Shown: positions 52,145 to 56,172 of the stretch, one piece after another
Layout: each line of letters begins with the position of its first letter
Position numbering within the stretch: the stretch's first letter is position 1
Assembly: GCA_020073495.1 (NCBI GenBank)
Contig: JAIQFD010000002.1
Coordinates: 558,001 to 622,000, forward strand
DNA length: 64,000 nt
Source of the DNA: Terriglobia bacterium
GTDB lineage: Bacteria > Acidobacteriota > Terriglobia > Terriglobales > Acidobacteriaceae
Direction: 5' to 3'
Program-made: the position numbers and the translations under genes
Notes under the pieces: generated by a model
Seen by the model: only the letters and a program-made list of their open reading frames with translations
The model's database searches: none
What the model was told of the DNA's origin: nothing

Positions 52145-53095
52145 ATGCAAGTCTTCCATCACATCGAAGAGGTCCCGCGCGATTTCGGCCCCACTGTGCT
52201 GAGCGTCGGTAACTTCGACGGCGTGCACCGGGCCCACCAGCATGTGCTCAAGGAAATGGTGCGGCGGGCGCGGGAGATCGGCGGCAGGGCGATGGTGATC
52301 ACATTCGACCCGCATCCTACACGCGTCCTCCGGCCCGACGTCGCCCCGAAGCTGCTCACCCCGCTTCCGCGGAAACTCGATCTTCTTTCGGCCACCGGCC
52401 TCGACGCTACCCTCGTGCTGCCCTTTACTCGCGATCTCTCGCTGACGTCACCGCACGATTTCGGCGTCAGGATCCTGGGCAAGCGCCTGCACGCCCGCGA
52501 GGTGCACGAAGGGGCAAACTTTCACTTCGGTCACAAGGCAGCAGGAAACACCGACCGGCTCAAGGAATACGGCCGCGAGGCCGGATTCGAAGTAATGGCT
52601 TACCCCTACATGCAGGTGCGCGGCCACAAGGTCTCGAGCAGCCGCATCCGTGAGCTCTTACGCGAGGGGAACGTCAGCCAGGCGCGCCAGCTGCTGGGCT
52701 GGACCTTCAGCATCGTCAGCACGCCGGGACGCGGACGAGGTTTCGGCCACAAGTACACGGTTCCGACCATCAATCTCTCGCGCTACGACGAGTTGGTGCC
52801 GAAGGACGGCGTGTACATCACGCGGACGCAGGTGAACGGCGAATGCTTCGACTCGGTGACCAACATCGGCAACCGGCCCACCTTCGGCTCGGAGTCATTC
52901 GCCATCGAGACTCATCTGCTCAATTTCCACCCCATCGAACTGACGGCGGAAACGAAGGTCGAATTGTGGTTCCTCCGCCGCCTGCGGGACGAGATCAAGT
53001 TCCCTTCCGTGGATGACCTGCGGGTACAGATCGCGCACGACGTGAAGAGAGCGCGGCGCTACTTCAGCCTGCTCCCCCGCGTCACTCGGCCATAG
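52145..53095 (+). CDS. ribF: Bifunctional riboflavin kinase/FMN adenylyltransferase
   Basis: The 316-residue enzyme makes FMN and FAD. The N-terminal adenylyltransferase has GNFDGVHRAH (22-31; the last Gly of the usual HxGH is Ala) and SSSRIRELL; the C-terminal kinase has VPTINL (the PTxN metal motif) and NIGNRPTFG with the catalytic Glu in FAIETHLL. ATG 52145 is five bases after the MBL gene. Its stop overlaps the convergent EamA gene by 14 bases. Confidence 0.93.
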   Translation: MQVFHHIEEVPRDFGPTVLSVGNFDGVHRAHQHVLKEMVRRAREIGGRAMVITFDPHPTRVLRPDVAPKLLTPLPRKLDLLSATGLDATLVLPFTRDLSLTSPHDFGVRILGKRLHAREVHEGANFHFGHKAAGNTDRLKEYGREAGFEVMAYPYMQVRGHKVSSSRIRELLREGNVSQARQLLGWTFSIVSTPGRGRGFGHKYTVPTINLSRYDELVPKDGVYITRTQVNGECFDSVTNIGNRPTFGSESFAIETHLLNFHPIELTAETKVELWFLRRLRDEIKFPSVDDLRVQIAHDVKRARRYFSLLPRVTRP

Positions 53096-54041
53096 CGAGG
53101 GTGGCGTCCGTGGGAGGCTCCGCTCCCTTGCGGTCCGGAAGCTGCACGATGATGGTTGCCGCCACCACCAGCGCCACTCCCATCAGCTGCAACCAGGACA
53201 GCCGCTCGGCGACAAAGGTCGCGGCGAACAGGATGGCGAACACCGGTTCCAGACAACTCGTCACAATGGCGCGGGTCGCGTCGAGGTACTGGAGCCCGGT
53301 GAAGTACAGGGAAAAGGGCAACAGCACCGAGATGCAAGCGAAGAAGAAGAGGAACCCCCACTGCGCGCCGGAGTAATGCGCCACTGCTATCTTCCAGGGA
53401 GGATTGACCACCAGCCAGAACAGCGCTGCTCCCAGCAGCACGTAAGTCAGGACGCGCCAGCGCTCGTAGCGGGCCACCAGGCCGTGACCGAAGACGTTGT
53501 AGAAAGCGAACGAGAACGCCGCCCCCAGGGCGGCAAGGACTCCGAGCGGGTTCAGTCTCAGCCGCGCGTGGCCGACCAGCCCGATGGCCAGCGCCGCTCC
53601 GATCACGGCCGCGGCGACGGCGAGGACGCGTTGCACCGTGGCGCGTTGCAGCCTTCGGGCCACCATGTACAACAGCACCCACACTGGGGCTGTGTATTGG
53701 AGAATGATCGCGGTCGCAACCGTCGTTTTCTCGATGGCGAAGTAGTAGAGAAAATTCGAGGCCGCAACTCCCGCTACGCCGACGACGAAGCACCGCAGCA
53801 CGTCACCGACCGGCATGGCAAAAGCCCGTCCTCCGCGGACACCGGCTAGAAGCGGCGCCAGGACGATCAGCGAGAAGGTGGTGCGGGTCTGGGCGAGTAT
53901 CAGCGGGTCGATGGCGGTGACGGTCCCGCCCAGCAGGCGGCCGGTGAAAACCAGTTTCCCCAGCGTCGCTGCGCCGCCCCAGCAGAAGGCGGCGCCGGCG
54001 ATCGCCAGGTAGCCACGGACTGGATGGGATTCAGCGGGCAA
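53082..54041 (-). CDS. EamA/DMT-superfamily transporter
   Basis: The 319-residue protein has ten hydrophobic helices in two EamA halves (GAAFCWGGAATLGKLVF ... ; GVLAALGAAFSFAFYNVFG ...), the usual plan of drug/metabolite exporters. The start is TTG 54041, inside the 3' end of the glutaredoxin gene, with GAGG three bases upstream, so it is coupled to that gene; no better start exists downstream. Its 3' end overlaps convergent ribF. The substrate is unknown. Its position after a cation exporter, OsmC and a selenocysteine glutaredoxin hints at a stress or metabolite-export role. Confidence 0.82.
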   Translation of the reverse strand: MPAESHPVRGYLAIAGAAFCWGGAATLGKLVFTGRLLGGTVTAIDPLILAQTRTTFSLIVLAPLLAGVRGGRAFAMPVGDVLRCFVVGVAGVAASNFLYYFAIEKTTVATAIILQYTAPVWVLLYMVARRLQRATVQRVLAVAAAVIGAALAIGLVGHARLRLNPLGVLAALGAAFSFAFYNVFGHGLVARYERWRVLTYVLLGAALFWLVVNPPWKIAVAHYSGAQWGFLFFFACISVLLPFSLYFTGLQYLDATRAIVTSCLEPVFAILFAATFVAERLSWLQLMGVALVVAATIIVQLPDRKGAEPPTDATLAMAE

Positions 54042-54270
54042 GCGCCTCGTCGATCTGTTCGGGATCGAACCCGATCAGCACCTGGTCGCCGATCACGATG
54101 GTGGGCGTCGCGCGGCTCTGATAGGTTTCCACCAGTTCGCGCACTGCATTGAAGTCGGCGCTCACATCTCGGTCTTCGTATTGGATCCCTCTCTCCGAGA
54201 GGTAGGCCTTCGCCGTGTGGCACGGCGGTCATCCAGGTTGGCTAAAAAGGATCACCCGTTTGTCGGTCAT
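54031..54270 (-). CDS. Glutaredoxin-like selenoprotein (in-frame TGA as selenocysteine, UPPC active site)
   Basis: From ATG 54270 the frame reads MTDKRVILFSQPG, then TGA (54231..54229), then PPCHTAKAYLSERG, and continues intact to TGA 54031-54033, 79 codons in all. The TGA sits exactly where glutaredoxins have the first Cys of CxxC, giving U14-P-P-C17; the cis-Pro block ATPTIVIG and GFDPEQI complete the fold. Downstream of the TGA there are two hairpins: CGCCGTG-CCA-CACGGCG right after it, and CCTCTC-GGA-GAGAGG with the loop about 33 nt away, its first base G, which fits the published bacterial SECIS pattern. The best reading is a thiol-reducing selenoprotein; a nonsense mutation in a Cys glutaredoxin is the alternative. 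It lies 37 bases after osmC and overlaps the EamA start. Confidence 0.8.
54189..54230 (-). promoter_or_regulatory. Candidate bacterial SECIS region of the glutaredoxin gene
   Basis: On the minus strand, directly after TGA 54231-54229: stem CGCCGTG/CACGGCG (7 bp, loop CCA), then stem CCTCTC/GAGAGG (6 bp, loop GGA) whose loop begins 33 nt after the TGA. A short stem with a G at the start of the loop in the 16-37 nt range is the published rule for bacterial SECIS. Confidence 0.55.
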
Positions 54271-54307: not shown

Positions 54308-54712
54308 TCATTTTTCCGCGAGCTCAATGGCATAGGTGATCTGCGCGGTCGCCTTCAGCATGCCTGCCACCGAGCAGTGCTTCTCTTCCGAGAGGCGCAC
54401 CGCATCCTCCACCGCCTTTTTCGAGACCCTGCCGGTCACGCGGTAGACGAGCTTGATCTTCGTGTACACCTTCGGAGGCGAATCGGCGCGCTCCGCCTCA
54501 GCGCGGACCTGGACGCCGGTGAAGGGCTCGCGTTTCTTCGACAGGATGTTGATGACATCGACGGCGGTGCAGGAGCACAGGCCGATCAAAACCAACTCCA
54601 TGGGGCCGTTGGCGGACTTGTCGGATCCCGCGTCCACGACGATCGCGTGGCCGCTCGAGGCCTTGCCGATGAAGCGCTCTTTGTCCGTCCAATTCACGAC
54701 TGCTTCGACCAT
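54308..54712 (-). CDS. OsmC/YhfA-family protein
   Basis: The 134-residue protein has the two OsmC Cys (LIGLCSCTAVDVINIL, using C47 at the family position, and SEEKHCSVAGML) and the usual alpha-beta layout. Unlike the Ohr subgroup it is short and close to YhfA. It probably reduces small hydroperoxides or handles thiol stress. ATG 54712 is 14 bases after the CDF transporter stop and a glutaredoxin gene follows after 37 bases, so the reducing partner may be encoded alongside. It is a paralog of the OsmC gene at 7280-7762. Confidence 0.9.
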   Translation of the reverse strand: MVEAVVNWTDKERFIGKASSGHAIVVDAGSDKSANGPMELVLIGLCSCTAVDVINILSKKREPFTGVQVRAEAERADSPPKVYTKIKLVYRVTGRVSKKAVEDAVRLSEEKHCSVAGMLKATAQITYAIELAEK

Positions 54713-54726
54713 TGATTCTCCTGCCG

Positions 54727-56172
54727 TTACCGACGGTTATCCGTCTGCGGCTCGGTGTGGATGAGGACCTTGAAGAGCTCAGGGGCCGCCTGCTTGAAGC
54801 GGATCTCGAGCGCGGTGGAAATGTCGTGCACGCGCGCGAGCGGCAGCGAGTCGGGCATGGTGCAATGGCAAGAGAGGTACAGCCGCTCGCCGACCTTCTT
54901 GAAGGTGAACTCGTGCGCGTCGATGATCTCCGGGAACTCGGCGACGATCGTCTTGAGCTTTTTCTCCAGCTTGGGGTTGCCCAGGACGGCATCCGTGGTC
55001 TCAATGGTGGCGGGCTCGCTCTCAATGTGGGTGAGGATGGAGGAGATCTCGGGCACGTTTTCGCGGATCTCGGCTTCCAGCCGGGTGACGGTGTCGTGGG
55101 CGTCTTTGAGGGGCATGCGCTCGTCGAGTTCCAGGTGCTGCTCGACATGCAGCCGGCCGCCGAGGACCTGCACGCTGACGTCGTGCACGTTAAAGTTGTT
55201 GCGCGCCGCCACGCCCCGGATCCGGTCAAAGATGTTTTCTCCCCCGAACTCGCGGGGCACGGGATGAACGACAACGTCGGCCTCGGGAAGGATGCGGCGG
55301 ACGGCCTGCGTCACCGCGTCCACCACTTGCTCCGACCTCTGGAAGGTGAGATTGCGACGCAGGGCGATGGAAAAGTCGGCGAAGTATCGGTTGCCGGCGC
55401 GGCGGATCCGGGCGCGGTCCACACCGAGCACTCCGTCCACGCGGGCCACCTCTTCGATGATCCGGGAGCGCACGCCGGAGGGCGCGGCGTCGAGCAGAGC
55501 GTCGATGGTCTGCCGCGCCAGCCGCCAGCTCACGTAGACGACGACGCCAGCGACCACCAGGGCGGCGATGGGGTCGGCATCGCGCAGCCACGGCAGGTTC
55601 AGGCGGCCGGGGTGGCCGAGTTCGACCAGGACCAAGCCGAGGATCACCACGGCGCTCGACCAGATGTCGGTGCTGAAGTGCAGAGCGTCGGCCTGGAGTG
55701 CCTGGCTGTCGTACTTGAGGGCGACGCGGCGCAGGGCGCGCGAGCGCCAGAAGTCCGCGATCATGGAGGCGAACATGACAACGAATGCGGCCAGGCTGGG
55801 CTCGATCTCCACGTGCTTGAAGAAGAGGCGCTTGACGGCCTCGTACACGATCCAGACGCAGGTCAGCAGCAGCAGGCCGGTCTCGATAAAGGCGGAGAAG
55901 TTCTCGACCTTGCCGTGGCCGTACTGGTGGTCGGCGTCGGCGGGCTTGTCGGAGACGCGGACGGAGAAGAAGGTGATGACGGCGGCGATGAGGTCGAGAC
56001 CCGAGTGCGCGGCCTCGGAGAGAATGCCCAAGCTGCCCGTGGTCACGCCGACAACCAGCTTCAAACCAGTAATGCCGACGGCGGCGAACACGGAATTCAA
56101 CGCCACTCCGCGCTTCTCGCCGCGCATCGTCTCCGACGCAAGCTGTCCCGGGTAACTGGCCATTGGGTTCAT
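54727..56172 (-). CDS. Cation diffusion facilitator (CDF) transporter with extended cytoplasmic part
   Basis: The 481-residue transporter has six membrane helices with the metal-site residues HSGLD and HFSTD in helices 2 and 5, then a cytoplasmic domain longer than in FieF (about residues 225-481), which looks like two ferredoxin-like ZT-dimer domains. It exports divalent metals such as zinc, iron or manganese. ATG 56172 is the first start (MNPMASYPG); a later Met (residue 16) could be used. It heads the CDF-osmC-glutaredoxin-EamA series. The metal is not predictable. Confidence 0.88.
   Translation of the reverse strand: MNPMASYPGQLASETMRGEKRGVALNSVFAAVGITGLKLVVGVTTGSLGILSEAAHSGLDLIAAVITFFSVRVSDKPADADHQYGHGKVENFSAFIETGLLLLTCVWIVYEAVKRLFFKHVEIEPSLAAFVVMFASMIADFWRSRALRRVALKYDSQALQADALHFSTDIWSSAVVILGLVLVELGHPGRLNLPWLRDADPIAALVVAGVVVYVSWRLARQTIDALLDAAPSGVRSRIIEEVARVDGVLGVDRARIRRAGNRYFADFSIALRRNLTFQRSEQVVDAVTQAVRRILPEADVVVHPVPREFGGENIFDRIRGVAARNNFNVHDVSVQVLGGRLHVEQHLELDERMPLKDAHDTVTRLEAEIRENVPEISSILTHIESEPATIETTDAVLGNPKLEKKLKTIVAEFPEIIDAHEFTFKKVGERLYLSCHCTMPDSLPLARVHDISTALEIRFKQAAPELFKVLIHTEPQTDNRR

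What the first reader, a model, noticed from the sequence alone, without database searches (positions are those of the whole stretch)
54031..54270. Unannotated glutaredoxin-like selenoprotein with a UPPC active site
A full glutaredoxin reading frame is broken by a single TGA that falls exactly at the first active-site cysteine (U-P-P-C), while the rest of the frame, the cis-Pro block ATPTIVIG and the final stop are intact. Two stable hairpins follow at once, and the loop of the second begins 33 nt after the TGA with a G, as the bacterial SECIS rule requires. Standard gene callers would miss or truncate it. It sits in a series CDF transporter, OsmC, glutaredoxin, EamA, so a selenium-based reductant for the OsmC protein is possible.
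Basis: partly seen in the sequence, partly recalled or inferred. Interest (0 to 1): 0.85.

Follow-up and report, generated by a model that had tools for sequence, protein, structure and literature searches.

The report
Selenocysteine redoxin in an acidobacterial operon
A small glutaredoxin-fold enzyme that looks broken by a stop codon is almost certainly intact, because this bacterium and dozens of its relatives read that codon as selenocysteine; it adds a conserved branch to a known kind of selenoprotein.

Summary
Observation confirmed. On the minus strand (54270 to 54031) an 80-codon frame encodes a glutaredoxin-fold redoxin whose first active-site residue is TGA (54229-54231): G-U-P-P-C. 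The genome has selA, selB, selD and tRNA-Sec. Of 66 GxPPC loci examined in the same family, 48 (47 genomes) have TGA at this codon and 18 have Cys. selA is present in 45 of 47 TGA genomes (the other two have selB and tRNA-Sec) and in 6 of 18 Cys genomes. A SECIS hairpin follows, loop G at nucleotide 33, with compensatory changes; its rare AGA codon stands in 33 of 48 TGA rows and 0 of 20 Cys rows. So Sec is strongly supported by sequence; no protein was observed. 'Glutaredoxin' needs care: no glutathione-synthetase match in the genome, and the nearest relatives are YruB/BC3987/NrdH-type redoxins and cGrx1, so thioredoxin reductase is the likelier donor (inferred). OsmC is a plausible but not obligatory partner: 8 of 45 TGA loci with enough upstream sequence show none. 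Selenocysteine glutaredoxins are a published family, so this is a new acidobacterial member, not a new kind.

The parts
54031..54270 (-). coding frame of the selenocysteine redoxin (79 residues plus stop), with Sec as residue 14
   Evidence: AlphaFold2 model with Cys for Sec, mean pLDDT 94.8
54229..54231 (-). in-frame TGA read as selenocysteine (first residue of UPPC)
   Evidence: TGA at the same codon in 48 of 66 GxPPC family loci examined, Cys in the other 18
54188..54202 (-). SECIS core hairpin CCTCTC-GGA-GAGAGG, loop G at nucleotide 33 after the TGA; in many relatives the stem extends to the positions that match 54186-54204
   Evidence: 94.0% of cells paired, 26 cells with changes on both sides, 0/500 shuffles as high; rare AGA codon; synonymous-codon null
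54308..54712 (-). OsmC-family protein, immediate upstream gene, with two cysteine sites (CSC and HCS)
   Evidence: PF02566 61.7 bits; upstream in 39 of 48 TGA loci
54727..56172 (-). CDF-family cation efflux transporter, upstream gene of the cluster
   Evidence: PF01545 158.9 bits, TIGR01297 262.9 bits; in view in 31 of 48 TGA loci
53082..54041 (-). EamA-family transporter; listed from a TTG start that overlaps the end of the redoxin frame
   Evidence: PF00892 121.8 bits; downstream in 47 of 48 TGA loci

Best explanation
The gene encodes a selenocysteine redoxin of 79 residues with a glutaredoxin fold. Shown by sequence: an in-frame UGA conserved at the catalytic position, followed by a SECIS hairpin, in genomes that keep Sec machinery. 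Inferred: SelB bound to the hairpin delivers Sec-tRNA to the UGA; the Sec at position 14 attacks a disulfide or oxidised thiol of a client protein; Cys17 resolves the bond as a selenenylsulfide; and NADPH-thioredoxin reductase (present in the genome), rather than glutathione, returns the enzyme to the reduced state. The client is probably a thiol peroxidase-like or metal-stress protein; the neighbouring OsmC is the leading candidate but is not shown. The confidence given is for the selenoprotein core; for thioredoxin reductase as donor I would say about 0.65.
For: Own genome, 3.70 Mb and listed as 100% complete: selA 566 bits, selB 697-aa frame 373.2 bits, tRNA-Sec with anticodon tca, selD 376.3 bits with its own TGA at GUASK. 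TGA at the active-site codon in 48 of 66 GxPPC family loci. selA over the cut-off in 45 of 47 TGA genomes against 6 of 18 Cys genomes, Fisher p 3.4e-7 (for G049, G059, G094, G105 and G174 'over the cut-off' is judged from the E-value, as their rows were not printed). The two TGA genomes without selA, G075 and G184, have selB and tRNA-Sec. SECIS covariation. AGA at codon 13 in 33 of 48 TGA rows against 0 of 20 Cys rows, while AGA is 2 of 168 Arg codons in seven window ORFs. Hairpin stronger than synonymous recoding at p<=0.05 in 37 of 48 TGA rows and 1 of 20 Cys rows. Two Bacillaceae relatives have the TGA with a differently placed hairpin, and their genomes have selA and tRNA-Sec. Donor: TrxR 374.5 bits, no PF02955 match. 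Best structural matches: 7c10 cGrx1 Z 15.1 and 3zij BC3987 Z 14.9 (a tie), then NrdH proteins Z 12.2-12.9.
Against: No protein or selenium evidence. The donor and client are inferred; one of the two best structural matches is called a glutaredoxin (cGrx1). The PF02955 search does not exclude every route to glutathione. 8 of 45 TGA loci with 700 nt or more upstream show no OsmC, so OsmC is not needed for the gene's retention. The selA search of G075 and G184 was empty twice. The window's own hairpin core has 6 contiguous pairs and its synonymous-codon p is 0.008; 11 of 48 TGA rows are above 0.05. One of five covariation measures, further pair types, is only mildly above shuffles (40 of 500 as high). 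Relatedness of the genomes inflates the Fisher p value.
Confidence: 0.96

Rival explanations
1. Pseudogene or sequencing error: the TGA is a true stop or a misread TGC/TGT.
For: Single internal TGAs with long open frames after them are common by chance (136 of 2293).
Against: The same codon is TGA in 47 genomes of the family; the 46 others match the window protein at 52-85% identity. The hairpin is conserved and the Sec machinery is there.
Confidence: 0.01
2. UGA is recoded, but as another residue or by simple read-through, as in a changed genetic code, not as Sec.
For: None specific.
Against: TGA also ends the same gene in the window. The aligned residue in non-TGA relatives is Cys. tRNA-Sec with anticodon tca is present, and a SECIS-type hairpin follows the UGA.
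Confidence: 0.01
3. A true glutaredoxin in mechanism: it works with glutathione, as the name suggests.
For: Pfam Glutaredoxin 55.9 bits; cGrx1 is the top structural match, tied with BC3987; a review describes Grxs, Sec forms among them, as using GSH (PMC13188914, passages).
Against: No match to the glutathione-synthetase family PF02955 in the genome. The Gly-Phe site shared by NrdH, Cp9 and BC3987 (PMC3720550, passages) is invariant here as G67-F68 in 15 of 15 rows. The best family model is YruB.
Confidence: 0.15
4. Dedicated selenium-based reductant of the adjacent OsmC thiol peroxidase.
For: OsmC lies upstream in 39 of 48 TGA loci and was seen in 0 of 18 Cys loci. The first cysteine site was found in 38 of these 39 OsmC matches, the other being cut by the contig end; the second shows in 39 of 39, as C-S/P-V in 36 and C-G-V in the three printed exceptions.
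Against: 8 of 45 TGA loci with enough upstream sequence show no OsmC; EamA, not OsmC, is the most constant neighbour (47 of 48). 15 of the 18 Cys loci lack EamA as well, so the 0 of 18 partly reflects another neighbourhood.
Confidence: 0.3

Closest known systems
Selenocysteine glutaredoxin (Grx, PF00462, UxxC), e.g. WP_010943784.1 and the Grx of Kim et al. 2011, as listed in PMC13188914 and PMC9312934 (passages)
   Same: glutaredoxin family, Sec at the first active-site position, Cys three residues on, SECIS after the UGA
   Different: UPPC motif in a YruB/NrdH-like sequence, in a CDF-OsmC-EamA cluster, and no glutathione-synthetase match in the genome; that cGrx1 (7c10) is the published Clostridium Sec-Grx is recalled and comes from no call
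Distant Grx-like selenoprotein 1 / UXX-star families (NF041114, NF041211, NF041212)
   Same: glutaredoxin-like selenoproteins; PMC9312934 files the first under TIGR02196 (YruB), the best model here
   Different: listed motif UxxT, no resolving Cys; window scores 32.4, 44.4 and 58.2 bits against cut-offs 72, 100 and 66
BC3987 of Bacillus cereus (3zij, CPPC redoxin; PMC3720550)
   Same: 37% identity and Z 14.9, PPC active site, TPT block, GF site
   Different: Cys in place of Sec; the paper groups it apart from NrdH and Cp9 (passages)
YruB/Cp9 redoxins (NCBIfam TIGR02196)
   Same: matched by 15 of 15 members scanned at E <= 1e-10
   Different: window protein scores 85.4 bits, under the 88.55 cut-off; Cp9 sits between a TrxR and a peroxiredoxin (PMC3720550, passages), this gene does not
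NrdH redoxins (TIGR02194)
   Same: fold and GF site
   Different: 42.2 bits, cut-off 85.75; no ribonucleotide reductase among the three neighbours named by Pfam

Membership tests
Bacterial selenoprotein | in-frame UGA at a position that is Cys in homologues | tested here: met
   48 TGA and 18 Cys among 66 GxPPC family loci
Bacterial selenoprotein | SECIS hairpin just 3' of the UGA with G at the start of the apical loop (distance rule recalled) | tested here: met
   best hairpin has its loop at nucleotide 33 in 43 of 48 TGA rows; covariation
Bacterial selenoprotein | selA, selB, selC and selD in the genome | tested here: met
Bacterial selenoprotein | selenium in the protein | not testable with these tools
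   needs 75Se labelling or mass spectrometry
Glutaredoxin domain family PF00462 | score over the curated cut-off | tested here: met
   55.9 bits, cut-off 22.9
Glutaredoxin in the enzymatic sense | reduction by glutathione; glutathione made by the cell | tested here: inconclusive
   no PF02955 match in the own genome; no biochemical test, and other GSH routes not searched
TIGR02196 YruB family | score over the curated cut-off 88.55 | tested here: not met
   85.3 and 85.4 bits; best model all the same
NF041212 Uxx-star | score over the curated cut-off 66 | tested here: not met
   58.2 bits
NrdH TIGR02194 | score over the curated cut-off 85.75 | tested here: not met
   42.2 bits

The most novel reading that the evidence does not exclude
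An operon-bound, glutathione-independent selenoredoxin system of Acidobacteriota: NADPH, thioredoxin reductase and Sec-redoxin feed electrons to the adjacent OsmC peroxidase (or to a client that goes with the CDF and EamA transporters). Sec is kept in at least 47 of 398 genomes sampled from the family, and some lineages have exchanged it for Cys, often where the Sec machinery or the OsmC neighbour is missing.
Probability: 0.25. Interest if true: 0.55.

Novelty: new member of a known kind. Interest (0 to 1): 0.42.

Why it matters
It shows a selenocysteine redoxin as a syntenic part of at least 47 of 398 sampled genomes in one acidobacterial family, where it falls just under the curated score cut-offs of the nearest NCBI families and would be expected to be cut or missed at the TGA by a standard gene caller (not tested). 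Close U and Cys pairs, some within one genus code (g24), make a natural series for testing when Sec is worth its cost. It also calls for a test of a glutathione-free selenoredoxin.

Tried and rejected
Chance stop or pseudogene: rejected by recurrence of the TGA in 47 genomes. First hairpin as part of the SECIS: not supported; 65.2% of cells pair against 63.5% in shuffles (28 of 500 as high) and the covariation score is reached by 46 of 500 shuffles, though it does exceed the slid versions. Rfam search of the window at gathering scores: no match of any family; read as uninformative for SECIS. Missing selA as a counter-example: G075 (same genus, listed 100% complete) and G184 gave no selA match, twice, but both have selB at 380 and 377 bits and tRNA-Sec, so an assembly gap is likelier than absence of the trait. 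A warning on the tRNA model: in the own genome its second match over the gathering score was a tRNA-Ser, so the tRNA-Sec calls were checked with ARAGORN.

Rows dropped before counts. 70 family loci were fetched (L022-L051, L062-L101). Four were left out of the U/C, SECIS and synteny counts because they lack the GxPPC motif: L085 (GCAPC, Cys) and L099, L100, L101 (GUMFC, GULFC, GUMFC, all with TGA at the same place). Other matches got no locus and were not fetched: among them G132 and G158 ('no stop'), two with TGA (G177:C444, G014:C221), three weaker ones with other stops (G110 TGA and TAA, G096 TAG, G014:C107 three TGA), and most matches weaker than about 1e-20; the list of matches was itself capped. 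For the tree, L052 and L053 were left out as copies of L031 and L026. In one search three rows identical over the first 66 bases from the TGA (L053, L070, L074) were merged, giving 48 distinct TGA rows (46 of the family, 2 Bacillaceae); the 20 Cys rows there include L052 (copy of L031) and L056. In one search the two Bacillaceae rows were left out (46 rows), as their hairpin lies elsewhere. In one search, selA matches under the cut-off (G035, G039, G117, G119, G159) were counted as absent.

Tree of U and Cys forms: 4 changes of state, 0 of 500 label shuffles as low, but starred branches force only 2; few columns and many open forks, so the direction of change is not settled. Literature: 'selenoprotein + glutaredoxin + Acidobacteri' gave 3 papers, 'selenocysteine + glutaredoxin + Terriglob' none, 'UPPC + selenocysteine' none, 'Acidobacteri + selenocysteine' 46, of which 20 were listed. 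PMC1794560 (passages) counts 3 selenoprotein families and 4 selenoproteins in Acidobacteria without naming them there, and PMC12013277 (passage) counts three in Occallatibacter riparius, also unnamed. So prior description in a table or in NCBI annotation is not excluded.

Full report
WHAT IS THERE. The minus-strand frame 54270-54031 translates to MTDKRVILFSQPG-U-PPCHTAKAYLSERGIQYEDRDVSADFNAVRELVETYQSRATPTIVIGDQVLIGFDPEQIDEALAR with TGA at 54229-54231 and a final TGA at 54031-54033. It matches Pfam Glutaredoxin (55.9 bits, cut-off 22.9) and, with Cys for Sec, gives a confident model (mean pLDDT 94.8) whose best matches are glutaredoxin-fold redoxins. A TGA followed by a long open frame is common by chance (136 of 2293 stop triples in this window), so the case rests on what follows.

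SEC MACHINERY. Two named close matches are Terriglobia/Acidobacteriales MAGs (L052, L053); L053 is identical over the first 66 bases from the TGA to L026 of a genome of the same family, so I infer Acidobacteriota, Terriglobia. The genome has selA (566 bits, cut-off 267.9), selB (697-aa frame, 373.2 bits with neighbours, cut-off 242.25), tRNA-Sec (65.5 bits; ARAGORN SeC, anticodon tca) and selD (376.3 bits, cut-off 125). selD itself carries one TGA, at MTDVKTVRLTEAVKAAG-U-ASK, a position I recall as the catalytic Cys/Sec of SelD. So this genome has a second gene with a UGA at a likely catalytic site.

CONSERVATION OF THE UGA. A search of 398 genomes of the family found a match in 243 (many are distant glutaredoxin-like proteins). 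I hold 70 loci of the best matches. At the active site 48 loci (47 genomes) read [GD]UPPC with TGA, 18 read [GD]CPPC with TGC or TGT, and none of these 66 has a stop in the body of the frame. Four lack the PPC motif: three are GUxFC with TGA and one is GCAPC. Among weaker matches listed but not fetched, G110 shows a TGA and a TAA, G096 a TAG, and G014:C107 three TGA. The two TGA genomes without selA, G075 and G184, have selB and tRNA-Sec; a repeat selA search was again empty. Two Bacillaceae (L054, L055) have SUPPC with TGA, and their genomes have selA (555 and 559 bits) and tRNA-Sec. Within genus code g24 three genomes have TGA and two have Cys.

SECIS. After the UGA comes CCTCTC-GGA-GAGAGG, with the loop G at nucleotide 33. 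In 43 of 48 distinct TGA rows the best rule-conforming hairpin has its loop at nucleotide 33, in 2 at 32 and in 3 at 23-24, the two Bacillaceae among these last. On 46 family rows the 8-pair stem is formed in 94.0% of cells. Five pairs have changes on both sides, 26 cells are compensatory (shuffled mean 8.6), and the covariation score is 0.215 against 0.096 in shuffles (0 of 500 as high) and at most 0.073 in slid versions; the number of further pair types is less telling (9 against 7.4, 40 of 500 as high). The hairpin is not a by-product of the protein: codon 13 after the UGA is AGA in 33 of 48 TGA rows and in 0 of 20 Cys rows, while AGA is 2 of 168 Arg codons in seven window ORFs. Under synonymous recoding the hairpin score is reached at p<=0.01 in 27 of 48 and at p<=0.05 in 37 of 48 TGA rows, against 0 and 1 of 20 Cys rows; the window itself has p 0.008, and L080 and L096, for example, are not significant.

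WHAT KIND OF REDOXIN. The best NCBIfam model is the YruB family (85.4 bits, just under its cut-off of 88.55), matched by 15 of 15 members of a sample alignment; Uxx-star NF041212 follows at 58.2 (cut-off 66). By sequence the best solved relative is BC3987 of Bacillus cereus (3zij, 54.6 bits). By fold the best are 7c10 'Dithiol cGrx1' (Z 15.1, 0.9 A, 75 residues) and 3zij (Z 14.9, 1.2 A, 75 residues), a tie, then NrdH proteins at Z 12.2-12.9. I recall cGrx1 as the Clostridium protein whose natural form is the published Sec-glutaredoxin; no call shows that. Passages of PMC3720550 say that BC3987, Cp9 and NrdH share a Gly-Phe site, that the BC3987 homologues compared always have CPPC, and that Cp9 carries electrons from a thioredoxin reductase to a peroxiredoxin. 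Here G67-F68 are invariant in the 15-row alignment. The genome has thioredoxin reductase (374.5 bits, cut-off 343.45) and no match to the glutathione-synthetase family PF02955, while 9 of 14 control genomes, E. coli among them, have one. I therefore think thioredoxin reductase is the likelier electron donor; this is inference.

NEIGHBOURHOOD. Of 48 TGA family loci, EamA lies downstream in 47, OsmC upstream in 39 (37 of the 45 with at least 700 nt upstream) and CDF is in view in 31. Of 18 Cys loci the figures are 3, 0 and 2. The flanks held differ in length, so CDF counts are lower bounds. The Sec form is thus part of a conserved cluster. Eight TGA loci with enough upstream sequence show no OsmC, seven of them with CDF or part of it in view; in L024 about 1.2 kb between the two was not examined further. 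None of the 39 aligned OsmC matches holds a stop.

DISTRIBUTION AND TREE. In 396 genomes drawn across the phylum, 10 have a match at 1e-12 or better, 7 of them with one TGA and 3 with none. In genomes of other families L123 reads GUAAC, L124 GUPVC and L127 GUAGC. So Sec redoxins related to this one occur elsewhere in the phylum, though few were found at this threshold. A tree of 69 rows needs 4 changes between U and Cys (0 of 500 shuffles as low; well-supported branches force 2), with poor resolution. The two g24 Cys rows lie within a mainly U group (support 82/85) and look like U-to-Cys exchange, but the root is not known.

COMPARISON WITH WHAT IS KNOWN. Two reviews list Sec-glutaredoxin (PF00462, UxxC) above their 'predicted' group, and several distant Grx-like UXX-star selenoproteins, one of them filed under TIGR02196 with motif UxxT (PMC13188914 and PMC9312934, passages). 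Earlier surveys name it in Geobacter, Alkaliphilus and Moorella (PMC1794560, passages) and in ten Sargasso Sea sequences (PMC1088965, passages). PMC1794560 also counts four selenoproteins in Acidobacteria without naming them in the passages seen. My searches found no acidobacterial glutaredoxin selenoprotein in listings or passages of the held library; only part of the literature is held and supplements were not open. The finding is therefore a new member of a known kind, with strong comparative support and an untested biochemical role.

Noticed in passing
L018 1480-2529 (G000:C4, selD): The selD of this genome is itself a selenoprotein candidate: in-frame TGA at GUASK, followed by a strong predicted hairpin (-21.9 kcal/mol over 54 nt).
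   Followed up: partly
L054 and L055, 3040-3042: Bacillus sp. Marseille-Q3570 and Alkalihalobacillus sp. YIM B00296 carry an SUPPC redoxin with TGA and a hairpin at another offset; both genomes have selA and tRNA-Sec. None of seven proteins from around the window's cluster (CDF, OsmC, EamA, RibF and others) was found beside them.
   Followed up: partly
L099, L100, L101, L123, L124, L127: Further UxxC redoxins with other middle residues (GUMFC, GULFC, GUAAC, GUPVC, GUAGC) in the same family and phylum.
   Followed up: partly
G154 (L048 and L062): One genome has two TGA copies of the redoxin on different contigs, each beside OsmC and EamA.
   Followed up: no
G075 and G184: Genomes with selB, tRNA-Sec and the TGA redoxin but no selA match; G075 is of the same genus and listed 100% complete.
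   Followed up: partly
G399, contigs C81 and C89: The Alkalihalobacillus genome holds two selA genes and two tRNA-Sec genes on two contigs.
   Followed up: no
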